64,000 nucleotides of DNA from Ohtaekwangia koreensis (GTDB taxonomy: Bacteria > Bacteroidota > Bacteroidia > Cytophagales > Cyclobacteriaceae), in contig NZ_FUZU01000001.1 of the NCBI RefSeq assembly GCF_900167975.1, positions 1,522,580 to 1,586,579 of the forward strand, in the 5' to 3' direction. Made by a program: the position numbers and the translations under genes. Below the pieces are notes generated by a model. That model saw nothing but the letters and a program-made list of their open reading frames with translations, was not told the DNA's origin and ran no database searches. Below, one piece after another: positions 23,182 through 40,820 of this stretch. How positions within the stretch are numbered: position 1 is the first letter of the stretch; every line of letters starts with the position of its first letter.

Positions 23182-23211
23182 GCCTATAAATACTTTTTTA
23201 AGTTTCAATTA

Positions 23212-25515
23212 TTAGCCAACCTCACCATCAACCGAGAGTAAAGTTTTTTGTGTAAAATTCAACGTGAAATCATCGGTAAGTAATTCGATTAGTTGAATCG
23301 ACAAGTCTTTCATTTGGATATTATAAGTATATCCAGAAATCATATAGTTTTTACCATCGAATTCAATTACACTATTGAAATTGATTTCAGTACCCGCCTT
23401 TAAAGTTATTTTCAAATAGTTTTTAAAGAACCTTGAGAACTTCAATTTTTCGTATGCGTATAGATGTTGATGTGATTCATTCAGGACACTACTGTCGTTG
23501 TTACTCCATGTTGTGGTTAGTCCAGTTGGATTATATTTCAAATTACCCACGTCATTTTGTTGAATACCTTGTGAAAAATATAGCTCTTTGTCAACTTCTT
23601 GGATTCCAAATTGTTGACCCGCTGCAATAGCGTTATAATATTTATCATACGTGATGGTCTGCGGATATTCTTGGACTGCCGTTATATTATCCCAATAGAT
23701 TTCAGCACTATTCCAGCCATTATTTTCTAAGGTAATAAGCAACGCTAATGTGTAATCGCCTGTAACACTAAACGGGAGACTTGTTGTGAAGGTAAATTGA
23801 CTCTCTGAACTATAGTAATATGGATTTGCAGTTGCCGTACTGCTTGCAATTACTGTTGATCCTGATTTCAACCATGCATATACATATCGTTGACCCTGCC
23901 ATGAGGGTAAATCATGACTATAATTAAATAGATTGAAATCAAATGATACATTTAATGTACTTCCTGTTGAAAGGGCTTCCAAAGTTATTGGATCGCTTTC
24001 AACAATAAATCGACCGTATGAAGGATCGTAACTATAACTCGTATCGACCTTAGTATATAAGGAAGTATTACCTGATGACCATTCAAACAATTCGTATTCG
24101 CCTGTACCGAAAGGTGTATTATTCCATCCAGATATACCAGCAAGGAAATTCCCATTTGGAACAACGCTTTCTCCAACGTTTTTATTAAAGAATGTTAGAT
24201 TTATTTGCTTGATCGGACGAATTTTTGATAACTCATCACTATCGAATTTACTTCTATAACTATCAATATTTATTGTCCTATCTCTATTTTCACGTGTATA
24301 GGACAAATCATTCCAATTGAATGTAGTTAATGGAGTAAATATTTCAAATTTTTGAATTATAGACCACTTATTTTCTACTTGCGATATACGCGCGTTGTAC
24401 GCTTCTAAAATATAGGATAGTGCATCGTAACAATTCAAATAGGTACGTTTCCCGTTTCGTTCATTTTTAACATATCTGTTTTGATTTGCATATACATTTG
24501 AAAATAGGCTATCACTTCCACTTACTGTATTTGTTCGGTAATTAACTTGCGAAAGTATATCTAGTTCAAGTCCTGTTTGCGATAATATAGTCTTTAAAAT
24601 TTCAATTTGTGGAACTGTTGTTTCGCCTGTTGTGCCGGTAATAGCTTCAACAGGGTAGGGAATATCTTTCAATTCCGCTAACCCGTCAGTAGCATTCAGA
24701 TTAATATAGTATGCGGGATTGACAAATTTTCTTGTTAGGTTATCCGGTTGTAGCCAGCCACTCCAATAAAGTATTTCTTCAAATTCTTGGGTTGAAGGCA
24801 CCAATAATTCGCACCTTACTGTACCAGTATTAGTTGAAGTACTTACGTAATCAACAAGAGCATGGACATATATATACGCTGCATTTTGTGTTGTCGCTGT
24901 TAAAGTAACCGTAGCCGTGCTCGCAGTTGTCGGATATGAGGCAACTATACTCTTACTATTAATTATAGTATTCAAGGCAGCATTCATCAAACCAACAGTA
25001 TATGTTACACTCCAAGTATTTGAAAATGATGTTTGGTCGTAAGTAAATTTTACGTCAACGTCAACAGTACTACCAGATGATAATACTAATGGATAGTAAG
25101 CGCGTTTAGTTGGAGTAGGAGACCCTAAGAAAACGGTTATATCACTCTTTATATAGGGTGCATCATCAACCCAATCTTGACCACTACCGTTAAGATCGAA
25201 AGTTGTTAAGTCTATAGACTCTGAAATTACTGTTTGTTGTTGTTGTGTTACTTCGACTTTCCAGTCTCTTATTTCAGATGTGAATAAATCGTCATAATTA
25301 GTACCGTCACTATAGAATGTAAAATTAACTTCACTTCCGTGTACGCTAAGGTCGTCTTCTTTACTACTTGCTCTATATGTAAGAGATAAAGGATTGATAG
25401 GATATTTTTCAATCTCATATACTTGCCCTGAATAGCTGTCTTGTTTAAGATTGATGGTAAATATCTTGTCGTCTAAGTCTCTTATTTTTGAAAAATATTT
25501 TAAACCGTATGCCAT
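23212..25515 (-). CDS. Tail-tip/baseplate protein (tail-associated, Tal-like position)
   Basis: A 767-residue protein directly after the tape measure gene, where the distal-tail and tail-associated proteins of siphoviruses lie. The N-terminal 120 residues form a beta domain (LTYRASSKEDDLSVHGSEVN); residues 300-420 are a mixed region (YDALSYILEAYNARISQVEN); residues 440-620 resemble a carbohydrate-binding jelly roll ending in GWNSAEIYWDNITAV. The C-terminal part (NYLKITLKAGTEINFNSVIE) is typical of Bacteroidota phage tail-tip proteins. It probably forms the tail tip hub with a sugar-binding insert. Confidence 0.6.
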   Translation of the reverse strand: MAYGLKYFSKIRDLDDKIFTINLKQDSYSGQVYEIEKYPINPLSLTYRASSKEDDLSVHGSEVNFTFYSDGTNYDDLFTSEIRDWKVEVTQQQQTVISESIDLTTFDLNGSGQDWVDDAPYIKSDITVFLGSPTPTKRAYYPLVLSSGSTVDVDVKFTYDQTSFSNTWSVTYTVGLMNAALNTIINSKSIVASYPTTASTATVTLTATTQNAAYIYVHALVDYVSTSTNTGTVRCELLVPSTQEFEEILYWSGWLQPDNLTRKFVNPAYYINLNATDGLAELKDIPYPVEAITGTTGETTVPQIEILKTILSQTGLELDILSQVNYRTNTVSGSDSLFSNVYANQNRYVKNERNGKRTYLNCYDALSYILEAYNARISQVENKWSIIQKFEIFTPLTTFNWNDLSYTRENRDRTINIDSYRSKFDSDELSKIRPIKQINLTFFNKNVGESVVPNGNFLAGISGWNNTPFGTGEYELFEWSSGNTSLYTKVDTSYSYDPSYGRFIVESDPITLEALSTGSTLNVSFDFNLFNYSHDLPSWQGQRYVYAWLKSGSTVIASSTATANPYYYSSESQFTFTTSLPFSVTGDYTLALLITLENNGWNSAEIYWDNITAVQEYPQTITYDKYYNAIAAGQQFGIQEVDKELYFSQGIQQNDVGNLKYNPTGLTTTWSNNDSSVLNESHQHLYAYEKLKFSRFFKNYLKITLKAGTEINFNSVIEFDGKNYMISGYTYNIQMKDLSIQLIELLTDDFTLNFTQKTLLSVDGEVG

Positions 25516-25518
25516 ATT

Positions 25519-27582
25519 TTATATTGATTTACCTCTGCGTCTTTCGACTTCTTGATTTGAAAAATATATATCCTCACCGCGCACCATGCCATATACTTGT
25601 ATAGCTTGAGGCGTGTTACCACCTAACATTTTTTCTGTTTGAAAATTGCTTGATACTCTACTACCACTTGGTAGATTAATTAATTCACGTCCTCTTTCAC
25701 CAACCATAGCTATACCACCACCTGATATACCACCGTTAGCGAATTTTGGGACGTTAGATTGCCACATAGCAGTTAAGGCACCAAGACCGATTGCAGCAGT
25801 TGCCAACCCGATTATACCTTTGGTTGACTCACCCGCGATCATACCTGCTATAGCTTGCGCAAAGAGACCTTGTACGATTTTGTTTAAGCCCTGTAAAACA
25901 GATGTAACTAAAGATTTAAAATCGGTTTCTTGACCGGTTATTAAATTGCCTAAACTGTCAGCAGCGTTGCCAATAGCACTTACAAAGACATCGTTTAGTG
26001 TTTCGTCAATTTGGTCACCAAGCGTTTGCCATGTTATTTTTAAATTCTTCGATTGTTCATCAAGTTTTTCAACATCCTTACTGATTTGTGTAGTATCAAG
26101 ACTGATAGGAATTTTGATCGCTTGAAGTCCTTTATTTTGTCCCTTTTGAATTGATAGTTTATTCTCATCAGGTGTAAAAGTTTGTGTGACATTAGATATA
26201 CCTTTCTGAAATGCTTTACCAACGGCTTGACCTTGTGTAGTTGCTTCGTCTTCCGTGATAAGTTTGATTTTATCTTTCGTAAGTACTGCCTGTACACCAT
26301 CTTTTAAATTCTCACCTATATTGCTTGCAAATAGCTTTGTGTCTTCAACAACTTGTTTGATTGCATTTGCATATAGTTCTGGTATAGCAGCGAAGTTACC
26401 AGTAAAGATTGCTTTTATGATCGCTCCTGCATTACTAAAAGTGTTCAATAGTAATGATCCAACTAATTTAATTACTTCCCATAATGTTTTGAATTGGAAG
26501 ACTAAATTTTGAATTATTGCCCTGAATAATAATGATTCATTATATAGTTCAATAAAAAAATTTATTGTATCGACTACTGCTTTTTTAATTGCAACTATAG
26601 ATTTACTTGCGATCTCTAATGCATTCGCTTTAATGTTATTGAAAGTCGTTGAAGACTCTCCAAACATTTCAACCCATGTTTTATTTAATTCTTCGTTTGC
26701 TTGTGCTAATCTGATTTGTGCTTGTTGACTATCGTTCGCACCAGCGACTAAATCTTGAAATTTAATTGAAGCATCACCAAGAGATTTTACAAATTTTACC
26801 CCTGCATCTTCACCGGCACCACCGAACACGTCAGCGAGTACCATACCTACTTCCTGACTATCATCACTAAATTGCGATAAGCGTTTACTTACTTTTTGAA
26901 GTGCTTCAAATGTGGTTAACGTACCGTTTGCAATTTCCTTTTGTATCTGTGTACCTGAAAGTCCAATTGCAGCCAGGGCATTATCTGTTGCCGGTGTCAA
27001 TTCACGAATACGCAAACCAAATTCTTTAACAGCATCAACACCTTTATCAGAATATATACCTTCATTAATTGATTGAGTTGCGATTTTGAAGAAGTCATCA
27101 GCAGTACTACCCATGCTTGCAAATTGTGCCGGATATTCTTTAAGTATATCAAGGAATTCTTCTGATCCTGTGAGTGCATAACCATCACGGATTTTATCCA
27201 AAGCATCAGGTATAGATATACCAAATTCTTTTGAAACGGCTCTAGCACTTCCCAGTAATTTTTCGAAAGGTATATCGAATGTATCTGATATACTTTTTGC
27301 TTTCGCAGTTGCGTCAACCAAATCTTTACCTATATAACCAGTAAGTGATTTGACGGCTTCTGTTGCCTTTCCAATTTCTTGAGAGAAAGCAAATACTTCT
27401 TTTGCAGCACCTATAATTGCAGTTGCCGCAAATGCTCCTTTTAGATAATCACCGATTTTGGAAATGCCTTTTCCGAAAGTTGAAATCTGATTTTGTGCTT
27501 CGCTTAACCCTTTCTTTAAATCGGCTGTGTTGCTCTCAATATTGAAAAGTAATGTTTGTAAAATTTGTCCACCTTTAGCCAT
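25519..27582 (-). CDS. Tape measure protein
   Basis: A 687-residue protein with a long helical N-terminal half (NTADLKKGLSEAQNQISTF, GKGISKIGDYLKGAFAA), two hydrophobic segments (about 340-375 and 575-615), and the typical C-terminal Gly-rich ending FANGGISGGGIAMVGERGRE. It sets tail length and assists DNA injection. The rule of about 1.5 angstrom per residue implies a tail near 100 nm. It is followed by the tail-tip gene after 3 bases and preceded by the frameshifted chaperone gene. Confidence 0.92.
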   Translation of the reverse strand: MAKGGQILQTLLFNIESNTADLKKGLSEAQNQISTFGKGISKIGDYLKGAFAATAIIGAAKEVFAFSQEIGKATEAVKSLTGYIGKDLVDATAKAKSISDTFDIPFEKLLGSARAVSKEFGISIPDALDKIRDGYALTGSEEFLDILKEYPAQFASMGSTADDFFKIATQSINEGIYSDKGVDAVKEFGLRIRELTPATDNALAAIGLSGTQIQKEIANGTLTTFEALQKVSKRLSQFSDDSQEVGMVLADVFGGAGEDAGVKFVKSLGDASIKFQDLVAGANDSQQAQIRLAQANEELNKTWVEMFGESSTTFNNIKANALEIASKSIVAIKKAVVDTINFFIELYNESLLFRAIIQNLVFQFKTLWEVIKLVGSLLLNTFSNAGAIIKAIFTGNFAAIPELYANAIKQVVEDTKLFASNIGENLKDGVQAVLTKDKIKLITEDEATTQGQAVGKAFQKGISNVTQTFTPDENKLSIQKGQNKGLQAIKIPISLDTTQISKDVEKLDEQSKNLKITWQTLGDQIDETLNDVFVSAIGNAADSLGNLITGQETDFKSLVTSVLQGLNKIVQGLFAQAIAGMIAGESTKGIIGLATAAIGLGALTAMWQSNVPKFANGGISGGGIAMVGERGRELINLPSGSRVSSNFQTEKMLGGNTPQAIQVYGMVRGEDIYFSNQEVERRRGKSI

Positions 27583-27610
27583 GTATCTATAGTACTTTGA
27601 CTATAAATAC

Positions 27611-27993
27611 TTAGTTGATGTTCAATAATGCACGCAAGAACTTGTCATCAGCTTTATTATCTATAATAGATTTTATTTCAACTTTTCTCTTTATTTCTTC
27701 TTCTTCTGGAAACCTATATAAGTCACTAGGTCTTTTTATCTGCTTACTCCCTTGAGTAGTGACAACAGTAAAATAGTTATTCAACCTAAATTCATTTTGT
27801 AAAAAACGGTAATGATCGTGTTGTATACTCTCTCGTTGATCAAGTATTAAACTCGCTTGAACGGGAGTAAGCAAGTCGAATTGCTCAACACTATAATTGA
27901 AGAAATTAACAAACAAGGAAAGGAGATAATCATAACTATAAATTATCTCCTTTTCTTCTTGAGAAAGTACAGGCTGATTACTGTTTAATTTTT
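27611..27993 (-). CDS. Tail assembly chaperone, frameshift extension (T part of G-T fusion)
   Basis: This frame has no good start of its own (only TTG at 27916), but it is joined to the upstream G-like gene by a -1 shift at a 9-A slippery run. The shift gives a fusion of about 226 residues, of which about 126 come from this part (Lys, Leu, Asn, Ser next, then QPVLSQEEKEIIYSYDYL). The G/GT pair between the tail tube and tape measure genes is conserved across siphoviruses; the fusion helps the tape measure and tube assemble. The intergenic motif at 27602-27612 covers its stop codon. Confidence 0.75.
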
Positions 27994-28290
27994 TTTTGAA
28001 GGTGTGAACATTTTCAAAACTGATTGTGTGAAGATGTGAAGGAAATTAGCATAATTTTGCTCCTCTGAAAGTATATCTTCAACGTCTGTTTCTTTGATAT
28101 TGAATGGTATATTCTCAAGTTTATGACCTCTTTTAAGAGCTTCGAACGCTATAACTTCTGTTTTTTCCATGTCGTTAATAGCTGTTTCAAATTCTTGCAG
28201 AGTTATTTTTAATTTAGCTGAAGTATTTTTTATTACTGCAAAGTCAATTGCTATAGGTAATTCTTGTTCTTTAAATTTAATGTAGTGCAT
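27985..28290 (-). CDS. Tail assembly chaperone, G-like
   Basis: A 101-residue protein between the tail tube and tape measure genes. It has an N-terminal beta part (HYIKFKEQELPIAIDFAVIK) and a helical C-terminus (NYANFLHIFTQSVLKMF). Position and the frameshift at its 3' end identify it; sequence similarity across this family is low. The gene ends TCA AAA AAA AAT TAA, and a -1 slip on the A-run reads into the T frame. Confidence 0.75.
   Translation of the reverse strand: MHYIKFKEQELPIAIDFAVIKNTSAKLKITLQEFETAINDMEKTEVIAFEALKRGHKLENIPFNIKETDVEDILSEEQNYANFLHIFTQSVLKMFTPSKKN
27989..27997 (-). other. Programmed -1 frameshift slippery site (9 A)
   Basis: The minus strand reads TC AAAAAAAAA TTAA just before the G stop (27985-27987). 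The downstream T frame is exactly the -1 frame, as checked by codon phase (28290 and 27916 differ by one base modulo 3). Confidence 0.8.
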
Positions 28291-28413
28291 AAAAATAAAA
28301 ATAGAATTGGAATGCGATACGTGTTAAATGGCAAGTAAACTCACGTTGTCGCCCCCAATTCTAAAAATCTTTAAAAGTTATTTTGCCATTTTAATAACCA
28401 ATCACTATATATA

Positions 28414-28875
28414 TTAAGTGGTTGATTTTGTTAAGTCGGAAGTACCTGTAATTTCTAAGGTAAAAGTCAACGGTTGCCCCGCACTTGAAGTAACTTCAAA
28501 TGAAGTCAATAAGCAATTACCAGTTTGATATATACCGGTTGCTAACTTCATTATCATTTTCAAGTCGGTACGTCTAGTCTTCACAAGTTCCAAAATTTGG
28601 TCAGCTCCGTAACCACCAGTAACTTTAGTTTCGCCAGATTGTGGGTGAGTAGTATCACCACTTAATCTTGTGAATACACCACCTGCAGAAGCAGTCCAAC
28701 TTTTAAAGGTAGGGGCGATTAATTTTGAAAAGTTATTGTCAAAAACCAAAAGTTCTTCGGTCTCAACAGTATAGTTTAGGCTTATATCTGTTAAACCTAA
28801 AAGTGCTGAACCAGTTGTTCCTGTAGTAATTACAAGAAATCCTGATTCGAAATATCTTACGTCTGTGCTAGTCAA
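28414..28875 (-). CDS. Major tail tube protein
   Basis: A 153-residue beta-rich protein (DISLNYTVETEELLVFDNNF, DLKMIMKLATGIYQTGNCLL, PLTFTLEITGTSDLTKS). Position between the tail terminator and the chaperone genes and the size are those of siphovirus tail tubes. No ATG is available; the best start is TTG at 28875. The phage intergenic motif lies 34 bases upstream (28909-28919). Confidence 0.75.
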   Translation of the reverse strand: MTSTDVRYFESGFLVITTGTTGSALLGLTDISLNYTVETEELLVFDNNFSKLIAPTFKSWTASAGGVFTRLSGDTTHPQSGETKVTGGYGADQILELVKTRRTDLKMIMKLATGIYQTGNCLLTSFEVTSSAGQPLTFTLEITGTSDLTKSTT

Positions 28876-28917
28876 TCTGTTTTTATGTTTTGAATAATAT
28901 TATTTACTTATAAATAC

Positions 28918-29277
28918 TTACTTTACTTCAAATTGTAGATACTCTGTGAAAATATTCAACTCGTTGTCAAAGAATGTTTCTTCATCTATAAGCGTTACCA
29001 TATTTCCAATAGAATATATCTGTGACTTTATCCTATCGGAATAATTGGAAAAACCAGTAGTGGTTGGAGCGTTAATTTTGATTCTTAACGTGTATGTTTT
29101 AATCGCCTCTTTACTTTCAAAAGTATTCAGATTGTCCGTGTTGTTAATCTCATATACACAGGTGACTTTCTTCAATAAGTCTTCATTTGGCAGATATAGA
29201 AAGTATACGTCAATTGTCGTCCCGGACAAGGCATTTTTTAAAGCACCGTATATTAAATTTTGAAGTGTTTTATTCAT
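28918..29277 (-). CDS. Tail terminator-like protein (DUF3168/gp17 type)
   Basis: A 119-residue protein: LIYGALKNALSGTTIDVYFL at the N-terminus, KTYTLRIKINAPTTTGFSNY in the middle and a beta C-terminus. Size, order between the gp10-like and tail tube genes, and the start LQNLIYGAL fit the family that caps the tail before joining the head. The ATG at 29277 follows the intergenic motif (29284-29294) by 7 bases. Confidence 0.65.
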   Translation of the reverse strand: MNKTLQNLIYGALKNALSGTTIDVYFLYLPNEDLLKKVTCVYEINNTDNLNTFESKEAIKTYTLRIKINAPTTTGFSNYSDRIKSQIYSIGNMVTLIDEETFFDNELNIFTEYLQFEVK

Positions 29278-29295
29278 TTACTTTATAAATACTCT

Positions 29296-29787
29296 TTACT
29301 TTTTCTTAGTTGCGTTTATGACCTTTCTCACTTGCTTTCTGATTGCCTTGTTTAATAATTTCAGATAGTTATCTGATAGGTATTTTACTGCCTTTGGTGC
29401 TGCACGATCATAAGCAGATTCGATGAATGGTTTTCTATTTATAGTACCTCTATTTGCTTTCTTTCTATACTTTCCACGCCCTTTTGTTTGACGTACTTTT
29501 GTGCCACGCTCAATCAATTTGATATACCAAGCACGTTTATTTAAGCCGACATATACCCCCGATTTACTTTCTGACTTAGTAACTATAGTATTGTTTTCTG
29601 CTTTGTTTTTACTTGACTTATCGTTATTGCCAACTGGTACACTTTGCTGTAGTTCTTTTTGCACTATTTTACCAGCGGCTTTATTCAAATCGAATTGAAT
29701 TTTGTCCGTGAATTCTTTAGGAATGTCGGCAAGCATTTTTTGTACTTCTTTAATGCCAAGTATCTCGAATTTGATTTGATTTCCCAT
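29296..29787 (-). CDS. HK97 gp10-like head-tail protein
   Basis: A 163-residue basic protein: FEILGIKEVQKMLADIPKEF, LNKAAGKIVQKELQQSVPVG, the family's VYVGLNKRAWYIKLIERGT core and RKPFIESAYDRAAPKAVKYL before a Lys-rich tail. HK97 gp10 family members join the connector to the tail during assembly. It overlaps or abuts both neighbours (2-base gap to the head-closure gene upstream). Confidence 0.85.
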   Translation of the reverse strand: MGNQIKFEILGIKEVQKMLADIPKEFTDKIQFDLNKAAGKIVQKELQQSVPVGNNDKSSKNKAENNTIVTKSESKSGVYVGLNKRAWYIKLIERGTKVRQTKGRGKYRKKANRGTINRKPFIESAYDRAAPKAVKYLSDNYLKLLNKAIRKQVRKVINATKKK

Positions 29788-29789
29788 AG

Positions 29790-30113
29790 TTATTTAATCC
29801 CTATACATTCTATTATTGTTGCTTGATTGCGTTGTACATGAGTGAAATTTATCACTTCATAGTCTTGGCAATTGTATTCAATTCTTGTTCCTTTTTTACA
29901 TGCAGGGAAATACCTCATGTAGAAGGAAATTGAATCAGAATATACATTTCCCGGTAGACTGTTGAAAGAAATATTACCACGTTGATTGGTTATAGTTGCA
30001 TATATAGTTGCAACCGTTTTGTAACTTTCAATTGGCTCACCGTAAGTAGTGGCACTTACAGTATAAAGTTCTTTTACCTTTAATAATTCGGTTAGCTTAT
30101 TGGTCTGAATCAT
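29790..30113 (-). CDS. Head-closure protein (phage head-tail adaptor)
   Basis: A 107-residue beta-barrel protein with the adaptor pattern: LYTVSATTYGEPIESYKTVA, IYATITNQRGNISFNSLPG, then CKKGTRIEYNCQDYEVINFT. Its order between the connector and gp10-like genes supports the role of sealing the portal channel. It overlaps the small membrane gene upstream by 17 bases. Confidence 0.75.
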   Translation of the reverse strand: MIQTNKLTELLKVKELYTVSATTYGEPIESYKTVATIYATITNQRGNISFNSLPGNVYSDSISFYMRYFPACKKGTRIEYNCQDYEVINFTHVQRNQATIIECIGIK

Positions 30114-30318
30114 TTCTTTTATTTTTTATTGCTAAGATGATTTTGACAACAACCCAAATGATTGAGCAAAGCGTAAGTAATGCAGTCAATAGGTTATTTA
30201 TCTTTTCAATATTTGTTGTTAGCCAAATCGTTGAAGTAATTAGCCATCCGATTGCATTATGAAGTTTCGTAAATTCCTTTTCGAATGTCATTAGGAGGAT
30301 AGATGTGATACTCTTCAT
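30097..30318 (-). CDS. Small membrane protein in head module (holin candidate)
   Basis: A 73-residue protein with membrane helices near residues 23-40 and 42-65 (LLTALLTLCSIIWVVVKIIL), and a charged C-terminus NKRNDSDQ. It overlaps the gene upstream by one base and the head-closure gene by 17 bases. A small two-helix protein with a charged tail is what class II holins look like, but holins rarely sit inside a head module. This is an inference; no lysis gene is recognisable elsewhere in the prophage. Confidence 0.5.
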   Translation of the reverse strand: MKSITSILLMTFEKEFTKLHNAIGWLITSTIWLTTNIEKINNLLTALLTLCSIIWVVVKIILAIKNKRNDSDQ

Positions 30319-30542
30319 TACTGTTGTTCCTCCTTATTCTTAAATAAGATTTTGCCAAAAAGTATTTTTTCAAGCCTCTCTATAAATTTATCACCACTAT
30401 ATAATAGCATTAGACCACCAATTATTAAACTACCAATTATCCAATAGTCAAACGTGATTGATAGGACTAATAGGTAAATACCAACGAGTACAAATGCTAA
30501 GCCTAGAATACTACTTTTATAATTTTTTATAATCTTTCTCAT
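30318..30542 (-). CDS. Small two-span membrane protein in head module
   Basis: A 74-residue protein with two membrane helices (SSILGLAFVLVGIYLLVLSI and YWIIGSLIIGGLMLLYSG) separated by a short loop, then a basic/acidic tail. It lies between the connector gene (3-base gap) and the next small membrane gene (one-base overlap), so the three are co-translated. Holin, antiholin or a membrane anchor for DNA entry or exclusion are all possible. Confidence 0.5.
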   Translation of the reverse strand: MRKIIKNYKSSILGLAFVLVGIYLLVLSITFDYWIIGSLIIGGLMLLYSGDKFIERLEKILFGKILFKNKEEQQ

Positions 30543-30545
30543 TCA

Positions 30546-31076: not shown

Positions 31077-31115
31077 CAGTATCTATGTTTACCTATAAAT
31101 ACTTTTCAAAGACAA

Positions 31116-31145
31116 ATAAAAAGGCTCGGTAGTTGCCGAGCCTTT
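31116..31145 (-). terminator. Terminator after the major capsid gene
   Basis: GGCTCGG-caacta-CCGAGCC in minus-strand sense, followed by TTTTTATTTG, 46 bases after the capsid stop. It would give a separate, abundant capsid transcript. Confidence 0.85.
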
Positions 31146-31190
31146 AGAAAATAAAACTAACTTAAATAAATAAAAAATATGACCGAAGTA

Positions 31191-32291: not shown

Positions 32292-32360
32292 TTCATTTTG
32301 ATTGCTACTTTTTTGTTTTGCCGGAAGTGCGTAACCGGCTAAAATTATTTATTATAAATA

Positions 32361-33035
32361 CTATTCGATGAACGAAATTTCATTCTCTAAAAAGAAAATT
32401 TCGTTATCAATCTTTTCTTTTTCAGCGTCTCTAGTTTCTTCTTTTACTTCTGATTTCAATTCTTCTGAATCAATTAGATCGGAAAGATTTCGAGCAATAG
32501 TTACCGGGGTGTTGGCGTAAGCACCGTCTACTACAGTTGAAGTATCATACAGACCACTAACTTTAGATATAGTTCGCAGAATCTGGTCGCCTTTTTTCTC
32601 CCATATTTCGCCTTCATCATCAACAGTAAATACAAATGAAGACTCGTAGTAATCACCTCGACTAACCATTTCATACAGATCATTACCTAATGTAGTGTTA
32701 GGTACTTCGAATCTATACTTTAGTCCTGTATCATCAACCGATAACTGTAAAGTGCCGCTTGTTGTACGCGCTAACATCTTACTTCTGTCATGGTCGATAG
32801 TATGTATTACATTCAGGTTAGGAGAGGCCAGTACGTCATCGAAGGCACCAGGTAAAATGATCTCTGTGAATTCGATCATTCGACCGTTATGATATTCATA
32901 AAGTAATTTTGACTCGTTGTTGAAAGTAGCAGCATATCCTTCAATATATCTCTTGCCGTCTTCGTTTTGTTCCGCACGAATGTTTTTGTCTTTAGAGACT
33001 ATATATCTTTTTTCTTTAATTGCTTTGAGTTTCAT
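32361..33035 (-). CDS. Prohead protease, HK97 family (S78)
   Basis: A 224-residue serine protease: IEGYAATFNNESKLLYEYHN, catalytic His in NVIHTIDHDRSKML, and the catalytic Ser in YYESSFVFTVD. It cuts the scaffold domain off the capsid protein. The C-terminal 40 residues are acidic and predicted coiled. It overlaps the portal gene upstream by 20 bases. Confidence 0.9.
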   Translation of the reverse strand: MKLKAIKEKRYIVSKDKNIRAEQNEDGKRYIEGYAATFNNESKLLYEYHNGRMIEFTEIILPGAFDDVLASPNLNVIHTIDHDRSKMLARTTSGTLQLSVDDTGLKYRFEVPNTTLGNDLYEMVSRGDYYESSFVFTVDDEGEIWEKKGDQILRTISKVSGLYDTSTVVDGAYANTPVTIARNLSDLIDSEELKSEVKEETRDAEKEKIDNEIFFLENEISFIE

Positions 33036-34254
33036 TATTATTAGTTGTTGTATTAAAATTATTTGCTGGTGTACCTAATGGCTGATACTGTACTTGCGCA
33101 TAATACTTATCCATTTCGGGGTTGTCGATTCTTTCTAAATTAAATTCCTTTCTTACTTCATTTGGAGACAGAGCGCCCATGTTGTTTAATGTCTTTGCTA
33201 CGTTCGCACGTGTGGTCATGTCTGTATCCATTAGCGGTTTGAAGTCAAATTCAATTGTGGCTCCGTTTATTCTTTCTTGGATTGAAAGTAACTTTGCTTC
33301 CAACTCGCAACGTATAATATTGCATATACTGCCAAGTACTTGATTTTTGAAATTCAAAGTCTGTTGTTCGAAGTTGGTATAATTTGAATTACTCTTACCT
33401 AATAAAAATATAGGTATACCAAATAGCGCAGCGATTGAACTCTCGGTATATCCTGCAATTTCCAAGAAGTTTAGATCACTTGGATTTATTTTCAACTCCT
33501 TTAATCTATACATCGGAGGAACAACTAACATTTGTCCAGCATTCGAATATCCCGCTAATTCACCTTGAATTTTTTCTAAGTATTCATCTTTCTTAGCTTT
33601 CGTAGTGCTTAGCGCTGTTTCAAAATCAACCTCAAAGTATTTTGTTGAGAAAGTATTGTTAGTAAATAATGTATCTGTTGTCTTTTCAGATTTATACTGC
33701 AGGTTGATTTCACTTTTTAAACTTTGAATAGGATTCAATCCATATACACCATCTTTAGACAATAACTTGAAGTGTAAAATTTCACTATGTCTAAAAGGCT
33801 TTTCAAATCCTTCAATCAAATACCACATATTCCCACCGACAATTGATATACTCACGTCATCAGGATTAACTAATAGTAATTCTTTCCCGTTGATTATTCC
33901 ATAGGAATTTCCCATAAAGAATAGTTGTGCGACAACCAGAGACATCCAATTTTGGTAACTGTATATAGATTGAGGTTGGTATCTTAACGAACTATAATAA
34001 TAATGCTGTTTGTTAATTGTCTTGTTGTTGCCGTTTTCGTTATAGATAACCACAGGCAATCGACTCATGTTGGAGGCAAGAATACTTATACACGTATAGA
34101 CGGTGCTGATCAATTCAGCCTTGTTTAAGTCGAAATTACCAGTACCAATATTGAACGCTTGGAGTTGTTTGTTTTTTAGAAACTCGTTGCGATCTGGTAC
34201 GACTATACTCTTTATATCTTTAGCAACTGGAAATAATCTTTGAAATATATTCAT
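33016..34254 (-). CDS. Portal protein, HK97/SPP1-like family
   Basis: A 412-residue portal with the family's segments STVYTCISILASNMSRLPVV, NWMSLVVAQLFFMGNSYGII and IAALFGIPIFLLGKSNSNYT, and the C-terminal TRANVAKTLNNMGALSPNEV. The frame is open to 34308, but those 18 codons contain the intergenic motif (34286-34296); the ATG at 34254, MNIFQRLFPVAKD, is the expected portal N-terminus. The C-terminus is Asn-rich. Confidence 0.92.
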   Translation of the reverse strand: MNIFQRLFPVAKDIKSIVVPDRNEFLKNKQLQAFNIGTGNFDLNKAELISTVYTCISILASNMSRLPVVIYNENGNNKTINKQHYYYSSLRYQPQSIYSYQNWMSLVVAQLFFMGNSYGIINGKELLLVNPDDVSISIVGGNMWYLIEGFEKPFRHSEILHFKLLSKDGVYGLNPIQSLKSEINLQYKSEKTTDTLFTNNTFSTKYFEVDFETALSTTKAKKDEYLEKIQGELAGYSNAGQMLVVPPMYRLKELKINPSDLNFLEIAGYTESSIAALFGIPIFLLGKSNSNYTNFEQQTLNFKNQVLGSICNIIRCELEAKLLSIQERINGATIEFDFKPLMDTDMTTRANVAKTLNNMGALSPNEVRKEFNLERIDNPEMDKYYAQVQYQPLGTPANNFNTTTNNNETQSN

Positions 34255-34301
34255 TAACAAACGGGTGCTAATTCTCTCCCGTGCTAATAAATACTTATCG
34301 G

Positions 34302-36008
34302 TTACCAATTGTCTAAAAGAGCATTCATTTTATCAAAGTTATCCAGCCAATAGCCAGCCATCGCTATATTTTGCGCAATCCATGCGTCAATCGAATGTCC
34401 TTTCTTGTTCTTCTGCAACTGTATATCATTTTTGAAAGATGTGTACAGATTGATATTCCCTGCTTGCCATTTGGTACATAAGTTCTTTTCAATAAAGTAT
34501 TCACCCGATATTATCTTTCGTTCGAGATATTTTAACGGTTGCGAAAGCGTTCCGATATTTTGAGCTATGGGAATAACATTCAGACCCTTATTCGAAAGAC
34601 GATGCATAATCTGTTTACTGTTATACCTATCATAGTATATGCCCTGTACTTTGTACTTATTCGAAAGGTCAATCAAAATTTCTTCAACTAGTAATTCATC
34701 CAATACAGGAGTTTGACACCTGATCACACATTCAGTTGATGCACTATAATTATAGTCATACATAATAAAGTCTTGGAGGTCTGTTACGAATAACCTACTT
34801 AGGTCAATTTCATTTCCTTTGATGAAATTCCTCTCAGCATTTGGCATTATATTGATTGTCTTACAGTAAAATTTGTCATCAACTTCGGCAAGTAATGCTA
34901 TGGATGTCAAGTCAACGTTGCTTGAAAGGTCAACACCAATCCAACATTTAGAACCTAGAGGGACAAGGTGATTATCTCGTATACTATTGTTAAGTACTTC
35001 GTTGTCGATGAATGGGCATTCAAGTCCTACTTCTTTCCAGTAGTTGAGCGTTTCTGTTTTGAAGGTCGCAAGGTTGGAAGGGTATACTTTTGTTTTATTA
35101 TATTCTTTCTTCAGGTCTTCTATGTTACCCATTAGTTCTATTGAGGGATTTGACTTTCTCCACAATTCAGGTTGTGATAATTCTTTTTCGTCATCCTGTT
35201 GAAATATATAGATGAACATTTCGTCGTCTTCGACATCCCCATCCAATATCTTAATACATGGTTGGTACAAGTCTGAAAATCCTTTTGTGTCTTTTGAACT
35301 AACCGTTCCGATACTATATTGAATCGGATTCTTTCTAGCACCTGATTTTCTCTTTGCTACATATCTAATATCAAGATCATTATAGAGAAATATTTCATCC
35401 AAAATGGAAGCAGATAAGTTAGTCCCTTGAATTTTTTCAGTCTCGTTCGTCAATACCAAAATACTATTGGTGCTCTTTGGTTGCTTGTTGTATACTGTTG
35501 AGTGTGTGATGTTAAAAAGTTTTGTAATCGCAGGACTGCTTTCAATAATTTGCTTTGAATAATCCAGTATAAGTTTACTCTGCTTAGTCGTTGGACTGAT
35601 GATTGCAACGGTAGCGTTTAGCTCCTGATCTGCTAGTACTTCGAGCAAGGCAAGAGTAACAATTAAAGTGCTTTTACCTTGCTTACCTGCACTACTTATA
35701 ACAGCTTCTTTAGTCACTCTCTCGTCTGTGTCTTTATAGTATAAGCAATAACATGACGCAATAAGAAAGACTTGCCATGGTGCTAGTTGTATTTGCTTTG
35801 TTTCGTTTTTGAAAGGTATATTGATGAGGCTGAAGAACTTTAGTATTCGTTTTAATTCATTCTCCCTATAGTCATATTTGTATTTGAATCTATTAAATCG
35901 TTCTACCGCTTTACGTTCGAAATGACCTGTTATAGCAGTACCTCCTGTAACGCTATCAATATAGTATTGGAGTTTCTGTATGTGATTGTTAATGTATTCG
36001 TCTGCCAT
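34302..36008 (-). CDS. Terminase large subunit
   Basis: A 568-residue packaging motor. ATPase: P-loop variant SSAGKQGKSTLIVT near residue 107, Walker B LSASILDEIFLY near 205. Nuclease: metal-binding Asp in WIGVDLSSNVDLTSIAL near residue 335 and the C-terminal GHSIDAWIAQNIA. It translocates and cuts DNA with the small subunit encoded upstream. The ATG at 36008 follows the intergenic motif by 5 bases. Length fits HK97-type terminases. Confidence 0.93.
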   Translation of the reverse strand: MADEYINNHIQKLQYYIDSVTGGTAITGHFERKAVERFNRFKYKYDYRENELKRILKFFSLINIPFKNETKQIQLAPWQVFLIASCYCLYYKDTDERVTKEAVISSAGKQGKSTLIVTLALLEVLADQELNATVAIISPTTKQSKLILDYSKQIIESSPAITKLFNITHSTVYNKQPKSTNSILVLTNETEKIQGTNLSASILDEIFLYNDLDIRYVAKRKSGARKNPIQYSIGTVSSKDTKGFSDLYQPCIKILDGDVEDDEMFIYIFQQDDEKELSQPELWRKSNPSIELMGNIEDLKKEYNKTKVYPSNLATFKTETLNYWKEVGLECPFIDNEVLNNSIRDNHLVPLGSKCWIGVDLSSNVDLTSIALLAEVDDKFYCKTINIMPNAERNFIKGNEIDLSRLFVTDLQDFIMYDYNYSASTECVIRCQTPVLDELLVEEILIDLSNKYKVQGIYYDRYNSKQIMHRLSNKGLNVIPIAQNIGTLSQPLKYLERKIISGEYFIEKNLCTKWQAGNINLYTSFKNDIQLQKNKKGHSIDAWIAQNIAMAGYWLDNFDKMNALLDNW

Positions 36009-36148
36009 TACAGATAAATACTTTCTCTATTGAAATAAAAATGAGGTAGAAACCCGATAGATATATTCACAATTAAATTGTTGGTACTTTGTGAATAACT
36101 TTGCATAGGTGGAATATTGAAAACACAGAGATTTGTAAAAAAAAGCTA

Positions 36149-36265
36149 ATGGCCTATATAAAGTTTAAAGACAAGACACTACGGAAGTTTGTCAAGGTAC
36201 TATATCATCTTATACAAGCTGCGCTGCTGTTAGCTTCATATTTGATTGGGAGAAATCATATTTAG
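36149..36265 (+). CDS. Small membrane-active peptide (38 aa), between terminase genes
   Basis: A plus-strand frame opposite to the surrounding operon: basic N-terminus (YIKFKDKTLRKFVKV), hydrophobic helix LYHLIQAALLLASYLIG and a short tail. A full -7 element TAACTTTG lies at 36096-36103, about 46 bases before the ATG. The shape is that of type I toxin or holin-like peptides. Real but unproven; the gap between the terminase genes is 470 bases and otherwise unexplained. Confidence 0.4.
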   Translation: MAYIKFKDKTLRKFVKVLYHLIQAALLLASYLIGRNHI

Positions 36266-36355
36266 GGGAATATTTTGGAATTTCGATTATTTTTTGTACA
36301 TTAATAATACAGCACCAACAATTTCGTTAGGTGCGGATTTACAAGATTATGCATC

Positions 36356-36535
36356 TTGAAACGAAAAACATTAAAAAAAATCAAGCGATATGCATCAGCC
36401 GTATCCTATGCCCTCGAACCGATTTGTAAATTAGTTGAAGTTCTTTTAGGCTTAACCTTCTTTATACAGAGCCTCAATTTAATTGTTCATAAACTCGTTG
36501 AATGCTTGCATGGGGTCTTGCTCCAATTCATTTGA
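36356..36535 (+). CDS. Possible second small hydrophobic peptide (59 aa)
   Basis: TTG at 36356 opens a 59-residue frame with a Lys/Arg-rich start (KRKTLKKIKRYAS) and a long hydrophobic part (LVEVLLGLTFFIQSLNLIV). Its end runs antisense into the last 57 bases of the small terminase gene. It resembles the peptide at 36149 in layout. Weak evidence: non-ATG start, overlap. Confidence 0.2.
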   Translation: MKRKTLKKIKRYASAVSYALEPICKLVEVLLGLTFFIQSLNLIVHKLVECLHGVLLQFI

Positions 36536-36820
36536 TGCCCGTGCTTTTTCAATTCCTAATTGTTTCAAAATTTGATTGATTGATTTTACAGCATTATGAA
36601 ATACTCCTACTGAGAAGTTAACTTGATAGTATGGTACTTCTTTGCCAATATTCACCATAGTTCCACGAGTGAGTATATCTGCTTTTGAATCTTCAATTAA
36701 TTTCAGGTTGAAGATTAAACTATCAATCAGCATGTCATCGGTTTCTTTGTCGTACTGCTTCTTTTTTTTTAGGAGCTTTATAACTCCTGATTTGATGTTT
36801 TTTACTTGCTTGTCATCCAT
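36479..36820 (-). CDS. Terminase small subunit, P27 family
   Basis: A 113-residue protein of the P27 terminase small-subunit type: helical core LLKKKKQYDKETDDMLIDSL, LIEDSKADILTRGTMVNIGK, then FHNAVKSINQILKQLGIEKA and the acidic tail (ELEQDPMQAFNEF) that contacts the large subunit. It recognises phage DNA. It lies 470 bases upstream of the large-subunit gene, an unusually wide gap. The motif at 36824-36834 precedes the ATG. Confidence 0.85.
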   Translation of the reverse strand: MDDKQVKNIKSGVIKLLKKKKQYDKETDDMLIDSLIFNLKLIEDSKADILTRGTMVNIGKEVPYYQVNFSVGVFHNAVKSINQILKQLGIEKARASNELEQDPMQAFNEFMNN

Positions 36821-36914
36821 GTATATAAATACTGTGAATAGTAGGGGAGTACCAGGTAATTGAAAACTTGCCGTATCTACCGAAAAGATTGGGGCTGTGA
36901 TTTGGCTAGGAAAC

Positions 36915-36930
36915 TATATTTTAAAATATA
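36915..36930. promoter_or_regulatory. Perfect 16-bp palindrome in divergent gap
   Basis: TATATTTTAAAATATA, between the divergent small terminase and PutAbiC-like genes and 50 bases before the latter. Candidate operator or structured promoter element. Confidence 0.4.
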
Positions 36931-36980
36931 TTTCCCCCCGTTGACGAAAAATATTTATCTTCCTGAAAATTGTATAAGCG

Positions 36981-37784
36981 ATGAATGAAAAGAATACTAA
37001 GTTTCTTGGACTAGATATAAATGACAAGAGAACTCCAATAATACTTGTCAAGATTGTTGTTGCTCTTTGGTTAGTGTGTTGGATATGCGTTTTGCTATAC
37101 AAGGAGAATTGGACGGAACGTGGACAATTCGGTGATATGTTCGGTGCGGTCAACGCTTTATTTAGCGGTCTTGCCTTTGCGGGTATTATATATACTATCT
37201 TATTACAACGTGAAGAACTCAAAGCACAAAGAGAGGAACTTAAATTAAACAGGGAGGAGTTGCAATTAACCAGACAGGAGTTTTCTAGGCAATCGGATAC
37301 ATTCATCAAAGATCAATTTGAAAATACATTCTTTGCATTAATTGAGTTACACGAGGTTATTATATCAAATATAGCTTTAGGAATGGGACATGCTGGTAGA
37401 TCATATTTGGTTGATTACTTGAATAGTATTCGAAATACTTTAGGTGGAATGACTGATAAGGTTAAGTGCGCTATACTATTTGGAGAGAACTACAGGGATT
37501 TTCATAAATCATTTTTAGAACCATATTTCAGAAGCATAAGAGGAATTTTAAAATTTATTGAGAAAGGCGAAATCAAAGATAGAGAATTTTACTATTGGTT
37601 ATTATACAATCAGTTTACCGATACCGAAAGACTTGTATTGTACTATCAGGCTTCACTTTCTGATGATAGAGAATTGAAACAAATGTATCGCAACGCTGAA
37701 TATTTTAAGCTTTTAGATGAGTATGCAGATGGAATAAGTAGCCATAGGCATTTTATTAATGATTTCAGAAGGTCAGAAGGATAA
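36981..37784 (+). CDS. PutAbiC-type phage abortive infection protein
   Basis: A 267-residue membrane protein of the putative abortive infection (AbiC-like) family. It has an N-terminal membrane helix (IILVKIVVALWLVCWICVLL), the family signature GQFGDMFGAVNALFSGLAFA forming a second helix with IIYTILL, then a coiled coil of repeated REEL units (LQREELKAQREELKLNREEL) and a helical C-terminal domain (FENTFFALIELHEVIISNIA ... FRSIRGILKFIEKGE). AbiC of Lactococcus aborts phage growth; the mechanism is unknown. It is transcribed opposite to the packaging genes and sits between the HNH and small terminase genes, which suggests a cargo insertion protecting the lysogen from other phages. Confidence 0.75.
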   Translation: MNEKNTKFLGLDINDKRTPIILVKIVVALWLVCWICVLLYKENWTERGQFGDMFGAVNALFSGLAFAGIIYTILLQREELKAQREELKLNREELQLTRQEFSRQSDTFIKDQFENTFFALIELHEVIISNIALGMGHAGRSYLVDYLNSIRNTLGGMTDKVKCAILFGENYRDFHKSFLEPYFRSIRGILKFIEKGEIKDREFYYWLLYNQFTDTERLVLYYQASLSDDRELKQMYRNAEYFKLLDEYADGISSHRHFINDFRRSEG

Positions 37785-37789
37785 ACTTT

Positions 37790-38137
37790 TCAATTAAAGT
37801 CACTTAACCAGCTCATATACCCTTCAATCTCTCTCATCTTTTTGTTGTGACCTTCTTGTTTAGTTTTCTTCGAGTGACAACTATGGTCAAGAGATTGAAG
37901 GTTATCAAAATCCAGTCTTTTGCTATAGTCTTCTGCAAGAGGTACTTTATGGTCAACGTGGTATGCAGGGGATGTGATGCCGGAAGCCAGACACAATTCA
38001 CACAACGGTGATTCCAGCAATTTTATCAGCCTTGTTCGTTGCCATTTAGTTGACTGATAAAATTGCTGGAATTTTGCCCTTTGACTAAAAGGATCGATCG
38101 GTTTATTTTCTCGTTTTATCCACCACGGGTTTTTCAT
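37790..38137 (-). CDS. HNH endonuclease (packaging-associated)
   Basis: A 115-residue HNH nuclease: CELCLASG (zinc pair), HVDHKVPLAEDYSKRLDFDN (His-Asn core), and LDHSCHSKKTKQEGHNKK at the end. Phage HNH proteins encoded near terminase genes stimulate cos-cleavage by the terminase in HK97-like phages. I chose the ATG at 38137; a TTG at 38146 adds three residues. It is separated from the small terminase by the inserted PutAbiC-type gene. Confidence 0.88.
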   Translation of the reverse strand: MKNPWWIKRENKPIDPFSQRAKFQQFYQSTKWQRTRLIKLLESPLCELCLASGITSPAYHVDHKVPLAEDYSKRLDFDNLQSLDHSCHSKKTKQEGHNKKMREIEGYMSWLSDFN

Positions 38138-38255
38138 TTGGATCAAGCCTGAACATAATGTTATTGATTCGGTATAGTGTTACGGCCTTTCGTTTGTTAA
38201 CACGTTCTTTCGTTTGCTCGATTTGTTTAAGTAGCCTTGATTTATCTTGTTGCAT
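38103..38255 (-). CDS. Small basic protein (50 aa), overlapping both neighbours
   Basis: ATG at 38255 opens a 50-residue frame: QQDKSRLLKQIEQTKERVNK, then RKAVTLYRINNIMFRLDP. It overlaps the stop of the upstream gene by 14 bases and the start of the HNH gene by 35 bases, a tightly packed arrangement that favours a real gene. Predicted helical and basic. No family recognised. Confidence 0.5.
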   Translation of the reverse strand: MQQDKSRLLKQIEQTKERVNKRKAVTLYRINNIMFRLDPNEKPVVDKTRK

Positions 38256-38787
38256 CTAAGTAGTCTTTGTATGTTACCCTGTTGAAATTATTTTTGTCTA
38301 TTATGAAAACAGCCTCGTATAGCTCTAATGAACGTATCTCTTTTTCTTTATTTGATTTGGAATAGTTATACATATCAGCTGTTGCGTTAAGAATAGAGAA
38401 GAATAGTCCTTCCGGCATATTATCATACAGGAAAAATTGATACTGTAAATCAAATATGAAATAGTAGTCGTCATATTCTATTACAAATAGTGTATAGTTA
38501 CCTGCTTTGTAAGCTTTGTATAAAGTTTCGAACTTTATTCGTTCTAAGAAAGTGTTGTTATATCTACTTGAAAGTATATTTCTCCTTTTAAATTCTCCAA
38601 TCACATTTTTTGTATCTGCACTTATAAAGTATAGGTCAAAAGCAGCATTAGTAGCAGGATCGGTCGTTACCAATAGCGAATGATTGAAATTATATTGATT
38701 AAATAAATTTTTGATTAACATTCTTTCTTCTTGCTGTATGCGAAGAAAGTATTCTTCCCTGCTTTCGTTGTGTGTGTTGCTCATCAT
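38242..38787 (-). CDS. Unknown phage protein, PD-(D/E)XK-like pattern
   Basis: A 181-residue protein. The order NAAFDLYFISADTKNVIGEFKRR gives an Asp followed by E-x-K, the core of PD-(D/E)XK nucleases, and a following strand-helix (YTLFVIEYDDYYFIFDLQYQ) could complete the fold. No further catalytic residue is assured. Located at the start of the minus-strand packaging unit. Alternative: a structural or regulatory protein with a chance pattern. Confidence 0.45.
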   Translation of the reverse strand: MMSNTHNESREEYFLRIQQEERMLIKNLFNQYNFNHSLLVTTDPATNAAFDLYFISADTKNVIGEFKRRNILSSRYNNTFLERIKFETLYKAYKAGNYTLFVIEYDDYYFIFDLQYQFFLYDNMPEGLFFSILNATADMYNYSKSNKEKEIRSLELYEAVFIIDKNNFNRVTYKDYLDATR

Positions 38788-38798
38788 ATACTGTATAA

Positions 38799-39230
38799 TT
38801 ATTTATTCTTTGTGGTTGAATGATAATAATTATTTTGGTATTGTCGATTGTAGTCTCGCATACGCTCAATATTTTCTTGATACCATTTTCGATTATATTC
38901 AGTTCTTTTTTCTGAATTTATCTTATAATATTCTCTATAATAGGTATTCCTTTGGTTTCTTACATATTCTTTGTGCAATATGTTATAGCGTTCTTTGTCT
39001 TCTTTGGAGAAATTCTTTCGCGATAGTCTTGTCAATTGTGCAATACTAACCGAGAAGTATATATCTGGAGTATGTTGTGTTTTATCGATCTTTCCAAAGA
39101 TATTTTGTAAATCTTGGGAAACATATAAAGTGAAATGAGTGTAATCTTCAATTGTACACTCGAAGGTAATTAGATCGTCTGTGATTGCTTGCTTGCGTAT
39201 ACGCGTAGCCATGATGTTTTCTCTAGTCAT
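38799..39230 (-). CDS. Unknown phage protein with Tyr/Asn/Arg-rich C-terminus
   Basis: A 143-residue protein. The N-terminal half is beta-like (LITFECTIEDYTHFTLYVSQ). The C-terminal half is extremely rich in Tyr, Asn, Arg and Glu (RNTYYREYYKINSEKRTEYN), a composition of RNA/DNA-contacting or aggregation-prone helices. Starts are ATG 39230 or 39212. The motif at 39246-39256 lies just upstream. No family recognised. Confidence 0.6.
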   Translation of the reverse strand: MTRENIMATRIRKQAITDDLITFECTIEDYTHFTLYVSQDLQNIFGKIDKTQHTPDIYFSVSIAQLTRLSRKNFSKEDKERYNILHKEYVRNQRNTYYREYYKINSEKRTEYNRKWYQENIERMRDYNRQYQNNYYHSTTKNK

Positions 39231-39331
39231 AAGTATTTTATTTTATATAAATACTTAATGATTCTTGAAAAGTATATTTACTAGAGATTTTAATTAGAGA
39301 TTTTTTTAATTAAAAATTACTGCTAACGAAA

Positions 39332-40045: not shown

Positions 40046-40086
40046 AAAATCTTAATTAAAGTTTTATATACTCCATTTCAGCCGAA

Positions 40087-40188
40087 ACGCTCACCCCTAT
40101 ATCTATATATAGAAATGAGCGTCTCTTGTCGTTATGCTGTGATATACGTAATTAAATGGAAAAAGTTGCGATAACAGGCAACTTTTTT
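40087..40188. promoter_or_regulatory. Divergent control region with dyad and attenuator-like hairpin
   Basis: ACGCTC (40087-40092) / GAGCGT (40117-40122) flank an AT-rich core. A terminator-like hairpin GAAAAAGTTGC / GCAACTTTTTT at 40160-40188 lies 28 bases before the plus-strand gene at 40217, so transcription into that gene may be attenuated. Confidence 0.5.
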
Positions 40189-40678: not shown

Positions 40679-40820
40679 ACGTATTTATATACACAACAAG
40701 AATAAAGAAACCTTTTGATATAGTGAGTGATGGTCAGATCAAAAGTGAAGGATATAGAATGCCCTGTAAGGCATTTGAAGCAAAAACCAGAAATACCATC
40801 ACATTTCTGGTTTTTTGTTT
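40679..40820 (+). ncRNA. Candidate structured RNA ending in a terminator
   Basis: Three successive hairpins: CTTTTGAT / ATCAAAAG (40712-40745), ATGCC / GGCAT (40759-40774), and a strong terminator AAAAACCAGAAAT / ATTTCTGGTTTTT (40782-40815). Upstream, GTATTTATA at 40681-40689 matches the phage intergenic motif in plus-strand sense. No open frame fits. A small RNA or leader is inferred. Confidence 0.4.

What the first reader, a model, noticed from the sequence alone, without database searches (positions are those of the whole stretch)
23185..39256. Ten copies of AAGTATTTATA at the gene junctions of the phage minus-strand operon
The 11-mer (minus sense) occurs at 23185, 27602, 28909, 29284, 31094, 32353, 34286, 36013, 36824 and 39246, always in the orientation of transcription and at a junction of non-overlapping genes; overlapping junctions lack it. 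It also settles two start codons (23181 and 34254) because it would otherwise be inside coding sequence. A plus-sense copy (GTATTTATA, 40681) precedes a candidate RNA in the right arm. It could be a phage late promoter, a phage-specific translation signal or an RNA-processing site. I know of no described motif of this form.
Basis: partly seen in the sequence, partly recalled or inferred. Interest (0 to 1): 0.78.

Follow-up and report, generated by a model that had tools for sequence, protein, structure and literature searches.

The report
Phage late-gene promoter-like motif at junctions
A virus dormant in a Bacteroidota bacterium carries the same short DNA word in front of ten of its late gene blocks, most likely a virus-specific start signal for reading those genes, which would explain how such viruses switch on their structural genes.

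Summary
In the operon they lie only on the coding strand (10:0, 0.52 expected), at 10 of 13 junctions with gaps of 15 nt or more and 0 of 13 tighter ones. None of 276 junctions in a 400 kb host sample has it. In three metagenomic relatives the core is 97% identical against 80% for flanks. A prophage whose terminase is 34% identical keeps GTATTTA at corresponding junctions; a Nafulsella prophage has TCGTTTATT there.

Best explanation: a phage-specific late promoter core (-10/-7 element, no -35). The local word follows terminators by 9-23 nt in 9 of 31 cases. No open frame of 40 codons starts 7-12 nt from its G; starts cluster at 13-16, where transcription would begin if TATTTATA sits in the register of the Bacteroidota -7 element TAHHTTTG (PMC6847099). 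No transcript data exist and no trans-acting factor was found. Translation-signal and RNA-processing readings fit less well. Some other Bacteroidota phages carry different junction words.

The parts
39246..39256 (-). AAGTATTTATA copy 1, first late unit (before 38799-39230), offset of start codon from G1 = 25
36824..36834 (-). CAGTATTTATA copy 2, before terminase small subunit; ATG at offset 13, predicted leaderless
36013..36023 (-). AAGTATTTATC copy 3, before terminase large subunit; ATG at offset 14, predicted leaderless
34286..34296 (-). AAGTATTTATT copy 4, before portal (ATG 34254, offset 41); conserved ACGGG...CCCGT inverted repeat follows (by eye)
32353..32363 (-). TAGTATTTATA copy 5, core overlaps the protease stop by 2 nt, before major capsid gene (GTG 32291, offset 71); GCCGG...CCGGC follows (by eye)
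31094..31104 (-). AAGTATTTATA copy 6, before head-tail adaptor gene (offset 27), 15 nt after a terminator
29284..29294 (-). GAGTATTTATA copy 7, before 28918-29277; offset 16 (14 in L021 and L022)
28909..28919 (-). AAGTATTTATA copy 8, overlaps a TAA stop, before major tail protein (TTG 28875, offset 43; ATG in L021 and L022)
27602..27612 (-). AAGTATTTATA copy 9, overlaps a TAA stop, before tape measure gene, offset 29
23185..23195 (-). AAGTATTTATA copy 10, before 22885-23181; ATG at offset 13, predicted leaderless
31120..31145 (-). Intrinsic-terminator-like hairpin after the major capsid gene, directly upstream of copy 6
40679..40689 (+). ACGTATTTATA, plus-strand copy before a possible short RNA; may be chance

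Best explanation
The motif is the core (-10/-7 type) element of a family of phage-specific late promoters. Each copy starts a separate late transcription unit: a gene or a run of tightly packed genes. In the register of the Bacteroidota primary promoter (T at -12), G1 of GTATTTATA is -13, TATTTATA covers -12 to -5 and transcription starts about 13-15 nt from G1. At TerS, TerL and the 22885 gene the start codon lies there to within one base, so these mRNAs would be leaderless; at the other genes a leader of about 2 to 58 nt follows. TATTTATA departs from the consensus TAHHTTTG at two positions reported as nearly invariant (-7 and -5) and has no conserved -35, so the host enzyme alone should use it poorly, and a phage-supplied or phage-modified factor should turn it on late. 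Shown here: the motif, its positions, strand bias, conservation, order after terminators and spacing. Inferred: that it acts as DNA, where transcription starts, leaderlessness, and the trans factor, which was not found.
For: Ten junction copies, coding strand only within the operon. 10 of 13 wide junctions, 0 of 13 tight ones. Three metagenomic phages about 77% identical in DNA (L021-L023, similar to each other, so not independent): core identity 157 of 162 against 519 of 646 in flanks over 18 aligned sites, which cover nine of the ten window sites (39246 did not align); GTATTTA kept in 18 of 18, and also at the first late site of all three. MAG SZAS TMP-62 prophage (TerL 34%, other matched proteins 27-42%): GTATTTA in 7 of 12 junction regions, 0 reversed, at corresponding genes. 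Nafulsella prophage: TCGTTTATT 6:0 (AATCGTTTATT in 5 of the 6) before the gene preceding TerL, portal, the gene in the capsid position, the adaptor relative and two more, and absent where the frame before TerL overlaps TerL; in a slightly longer stretch the count is 6:1. Terminators: 9 of 31 detected in seven phage loci are followed by the local word within 9-23 nt. Start offsets from G1: window 13, 13, 14, 16, 25, 27, 29, 41, 43, 71; near ones in L021 13, 13, 14, 14, in L022 13, 14, 14, in L023 13, 14, in L024 13, 14, 14, 14, 15, in Nafulsella 15; in the five GTATTTA phages no frame of 40 codons or more starts at offsets 7-12. The short spacers keep length while letters change; long ones gain and lose bases (29284 is an exception, 16 against 14). 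Consensus register T-12 A-11 T-8 T-7 T-6 G-5 (PMC6847099 passages). TAHHTTTG is enriched in this host's junctions, 27 coding against 10 reverse; its 9 coding-strand sites in the operon all lie inside genes by the gene table (six in late genes, three opposite the inserted plus-strand gene; one, at 34334, in the last codons of TerL about 40 nt upstream of copy 4).
Against: No transcript data. No sigma factor, activator or RNA polymerase recognised in the prophage proteins scanned. No conserved -35. L024 has 0 of 4 terminators followed by the word within 25 nt. In L021 and L023 one copy lies inside a gene's 3' end, though 56 nt before the next small ORF. In the Nafulsella prophage one frame could start with TTG at offset 8, with an ATG at 29 as alternative. 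Terminator and motif both live in junctions, so their closeness is partly expected; the constant order is the informative part. Other phages' junction words (CCACCGTAA in L168, TTCATCAACA in L158) do not look like -10 boxes and where they stand at junctions sit 11-26 nt from starts, which would also suit a leader-RNA signal.
Confidence: 0.72

Rival explanations
1. RNA-processing site: a long late transcript is cut at AGUAUUUAU between genes by a host or phage RNase, giving each gene block its own 5' end and stability.
For: Ten copies all in transcript sense at junctions; three cores overlap the upstream stop codon, so they are in the upstream transcript if it reads through. T4 RegB is a precedent for cutting at a motif near starts (recalled).
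Against: At the post-capsid junction the word lies beyond a strong terminator. The 13-nt floor for the start codon is not predicted. No RNase family was recognised in the proteins scanned, apart from an HNH endonuclease, which is a DNA enzyme as a rule (recalled).
Confidence: 0.15
2. Phage-specific translation signal in place of a Shine-Dalgarno sequence.
For: Bacteroidota lack Shine-Dalgarno signals (PMC6847099, abstract start and passages); the word stands before genes.
Against: Spacing to the start runs 13-71 nt; 13 of 13 tightly spaced or overlapping genes lack it although they need translation too.
Confidence: 0.06
3. Antitermination or pausing element: late transcription starts once and the repeated word lets polymerase pass the terminators.
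For: A terminator stands inside the late operon; lambdoid phages read late operons through by antitermination (recalled).
Against: The word lies downstream, not upstream, of the terminators it would act on, and only one of the ten window copies follows a called terminator within 25 nt.
Confidence: 0.05
4. A-T-rich chance repetition or host-wide signal.
For: The operon is 66% A+T; two copies each of AGTATTTAT and GTATTTATA lie elsewhere in the window; GTATTTATA is in excess genome-wide, 280 against 125 for reversed letters.
Against: 0.52 expected against 10; host junctions 0 of 276; conservation.
Confidence: 0.02

Closest known systems
T4 late promoter (TATAAATA, gp55; recalled, papers seen only as a search listing)
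   Same: Many copies before late genes, a -10-type box without -35
   Different: Letters differ in the reading direction (TATTTATA is its reverse complement); no gp55 relative recognised; small temperate siphovirus of Bacteroidota
Bacteroidota primary sigma promoter, -7 TAHHTTTG and -33 TTTG (PMC6847099, PMC9723704 and PMC7366714, passages only)
   Same: TA at -12/-11, T at -8 and -6, no G at -10/-9, same distance to the inferred +1
   Different: A instead of T at -7, no G at -5 in the window copies, no conserved -33, AG kept upstream, not found at sampled host junctions
Activator-driven late promoters of temperate phages such as Mu C or P2 Ogr (recalled; a Mu paper seen in a listing)
   Same: Several late units switched on together by one factor
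   Different: More copies, short box, no dyad seen, no factor recognised

Membership tests
T4-type late promoter | TATAAATA box in transcription direction | tested here: not met
   Word in transcription direction is AGTATTTATA
T4-type late promoter | No -35 element | tested here: met
   No block conserved upstream at fixed distance in the ten sites
T4-type late promoter | gp55-like sigma encoded by the phage | tested here: inconclusive
   No Pfam, PHROG or NCBIfam match to one in the proteins scanned; short divergent proteins could be missed
Bacteroidota primary sigma promoter | TAHHTTTG -7 element | tested here: not met
   TATTTATA differs at -7 and -5; host control 27:10 shows that the test can detect the element
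Promoter (any kind) | Primary transcript 5' end at a fixed distance | not testable with these tools
   Only indirect: start-codon floor at 13 nt
Single-subunit phage RNA polymerase promoter | Phage-encoded RNA polymerase | tested here: not met
   No such family among the prophage proteins scanned
Ribosome-binding signal | Narrow fixed spacing to the start codon and presence at most starts | tested here: not met
   13-71 nt; 0 of 13 tight junctions
RNA-processing site | Cleavage at the motif | not testable with these tools
   Needs RNA 5'-end chemistry

The most novel reading that the evidence does not exclude
Bacteroidota siphophages carry private late-promoter alphabets: each phage lineage uses its own short core word before its late units, read by an undescribed phage-supplied specificity factor acting on the unusual Bacteroidota RNA polymerase, with part of the structural genes made from leaderless mRNAs.
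Probability: 0.35. Interest if true: 0.8.

Novelty: new variant of a known kind. Interest (0 to 1): 0.58.

Why it matters
No description of late transcription in Bacteroidota temperate siphophages turned up in the searches made here (open-access library only). A word that predicts transcription starts to the base would make that control directly testable, and the cultured phages Leef_1 and Ingeline_1, which carry their own junction word, offer a parallel case. It could also supply promoters independent of host control in a phylum with its own promoter grammar.

Tried and rejected
Host-wide use: not supported by junction counts in a 400 kb sample. Spread through all TerL relatives: of the 86 new loci I scored 27; L135 and the two Nafulsella records (L059, L136) show the words above, the Bacteroidota locus L137 (Marinilabilia) and the other 23, from other or unstated hosts, do not have GTATTTA among the top four junction words printed. 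Spread through all Bacteroidota relatives: not so. Of 40 loci scored (the window, L021-L023, L137 and 35 from genomes of the host's family, order or class), 12 have a junction word at least 2 log units above the best of 40 shuffles, four of these being the window and its close kin, and the words differ between lineages; the T-rich words of L029 and L035 were not tested against their hosts. All 15 other family genomes with a match and all 17 new order genomes were fetched, but only 3 of the 5 new class genomes (G714 and G767 left out). A conserved regulator gene: the genes just before the first motif differ between window, L022 and L023 apart from a shared 23-residue start of 39707 in L023; a profile of the 38799 protein found nothing in nine distant phage loci. 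Rfam: three matches, all below gathering score. Described motif: no paper found that describes it in searches (listings), and the passages of PMC8776804, the Leef_1/Ingeline_1 paper, have 0 mentions of promoter.

Full report
What is there. The ten sites exist at the stated places and all point along transcription. Exact AAGTATTTATA occurs at five; the other five differ by one letter. The letters common to all are AGTATTTAT. In the 22.5 kb late operon this 9-mer occurs 10 times on the coding strand and never on the other, against 0.52 expected from a trinucleotide model, and it is the top-scoring 9-mer of the operon. The cores lie outside genes or overlap a stop codon by 1-2 nt (three of ten); 5.9% of 9-nt windows would pass the looser limit of 3 coding nt. 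The genes behind the copies are terminase small and large subunits, portal, major capsid, head-tail adaptor, 28918, major tail protein, tape measure, the 22885 tail-fibre-like gene and the first late gene 38799. Of 26 junctions, 10 of 13 with a gap of 15 nt or more carry it and 0 of 13 tighter ones (counting the 50-codon ORF 38103-38255; without it 10 of 14 and 0 of 11). The exceptions are the genes starting at 28290, 27916 and 19420; the first follows an inverted repeat seen by eye but not called by the scans, the second looks like a tail-chaperone frameshift product (inference).

Background. In the host genome AGTATTTAT occurs 169 times in 7.24 Mb, prophage included, against 102 for the reversed letters. 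In a 400 kb sample of the host (20 stretches) it occurs 5 times and in 0 of 276 junction regions. GTATTTATA is 280 against 125 genome-wide, an excess that I could not tie to host junctions: 3 of the 15 sample hits were intergenic, at 74 and 107 nt from the next start on that strand or with none in the stretch.

Relatives. Four IMG/VR records carry close relatives of the terminase; L001, 100% identical in TerL with the same motif spacing, looks like the same prophage and adds nothing. The other three come from metagenomes, 71-90% identical in DNA over the aligned pieces and about 78% over the longest; AGTATTTAT is 8:0, 4:0 and 5:0. Over 18 aligned sites the core is 157 of 162 identical, the flanks of up to 20 nt on each side 519 of 646, and GTATTTA is unchanged in 18 of 18; these three phages resemble each other, so the sites are not independent. 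One copy in L021 and L023 lies inside the end of a gene, 56 nt before the next small ORF. Among 295 genomes of the host's family, 15 besides the host have a terminase relative. The nearest, the MAG SZAS TMP-62 (34% TerL; name from the contig of equal length), has GTATTTA in 7 of 12 junction regions and 0 reversed, before the gene in the TerS position, TerL, portal, capsid, adaptor, the 28918 relative and tape measure; 3 of its 11 coding-strand copies lie elsewhere. Nafulsella turpanensis has TCGTTTATT 6:0 (6:1 in a longer stretch) at corresponding junctions and none where the frame before TerL overlaps TerL. Its capsid and small terminase are named by position only.

Mechanism. Three facts point to a promoter. 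First, order: in seven phage loci 31 terminators were detected and 9 are followed within 9-23 nt by that phage's own word; a transcript that carried the word as RNA would have to begin in those few bases or read through. Both kinds of element live in junctions, L024 shows 0 of 4, and the window, L021 and L022 cases are one homologous site. Second, spacing: counted from the G of GTATTTATA, start codons lie at 13, 13, 14, 16, 25, 27, 29, 41, 43 and 71 in the window, and near ones in the four GTATTTA relatives at 13, 14 or 15. In these five phages no frame of 40 codons starts at 7-12. There is a floor but no ceiling. At TerS, TerL and 22885 the spacer keeps its length while its letters change, the long ones gain and lose bases; before 28918 the offset is 16 in the window and 14 in L021 and L022. 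Third, register: the primary Bacteroidota promoter has its -7 element at T-12 A-11 T-8 T-7 T-6 G-5 (PMC6847099, passages). Laying TATTTATA on -12 to -5 puts +1 at position 14 from the G, where those start codons are. Leaderless mRNAs are a minority in this phylum (5.5% in PMC9723704; about 3.7% with leaders under 10 nt in PMC7366714; passages), so this is a sharp prediction. My own control found TAHHTTTG in host junctions 27 times coding against 10 reverse; in the late operon it occurs 9 times coding and 18 reverse, and the 9 all lie within genes or over the inserted opposite-strand gene, one of them in the last codons of TerL upstream of copy 4. The gene 40926 has a host-type TATTTTTG at 40890. 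So early genes may use the host promoter and late units the variant; that is inference.

What reads it is unknown. No sigma factor, polymerase or known activator was recognised in the proteins scanned, structure prediction was off, and the genes directly before the first late site are hardly conserved among close relatives.

Wider picture. Among 40 terminase-bearing loci, the window included, 12 have a junction word well above shuffles: besides those above TTTTTAATTA behind TTGATA (L032), TTTTACTTA (L028; contexts), ATTTTTTAA (L029, L035), TTCATCAACA (L158), CCACCGTAA (L168). In the cultured phages Leef_1 and Ingeline_1 the word is TGTCCTTTT, at several places right after terminators (by eye), and in 6 of 13 plus-strand copies 40-42 nt before the next annotated start; that fits an upstream (-35 or activator) box rather than a -10 box. 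Of the other five phage records scanned, L145 had a GC-rich word, AAACCCCG, at 4 junctions and the rest scored 4.4-6.4, without shuffle control. These words differ in kind, so one mechanism for all is not shown.

Verdict. Real, conserved, phage-specific, most likely a late-promoter core; a new variant of a known kind. Novelty rests on open-access searches only.

Noticed in passing
window 43871-45592 (-): 573-aa gene with no family match whose C-terminus reads like a tyrosine recombinase (recalled motif); a 41% relative lies in L022, so it is probably the phage integrase and the prophage spans roughly 17-46 kb.
   Followed up: partly
window 36981-37784 (+): Gene on the opposite strand inside the late operon, Pfam putAbiC (abortive infection); two tandem relatives in L022 at 9477-11018.
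   Followed up: partly
window 40642-40815 (+): Possible short RNA ending in a terminator-like hairpin, with a host-type TATTTTTG at 40642 and GTATTTATA at 40681.
   Followed up: partly
window 39975-40129: Stretch 84% conserved in L023 with an inverted repeat ACGCTCA...TGAGCGT seen by eye upstream of 40045; possible operator.
   Followed up: no
L148 and L149 (Leef_1, Ingeline_1): TGTCCTTTT at junctions, several right after terminators; both records annotate a LuxR-family regulator.
   Followed up: partly
L168; L158, L161, L165: Private junction words CCACCGTAA and TTCATCAACA/TTCATCAATA before several starts.
   Followed up: partly
L025 (reverse complement) 2805, 4256, 5489, 10371: Second word GACTATTTA in the Nafulsella prophage, mostly upstream of the late region; possibly another promoter class.
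   Followed up: no
window 27611-28290 (-): Two neighbouring tail genes in different frames with an A-run near the end of the first, like a programmed frameshift of tail-assembly chaperones.
   Followed up: no
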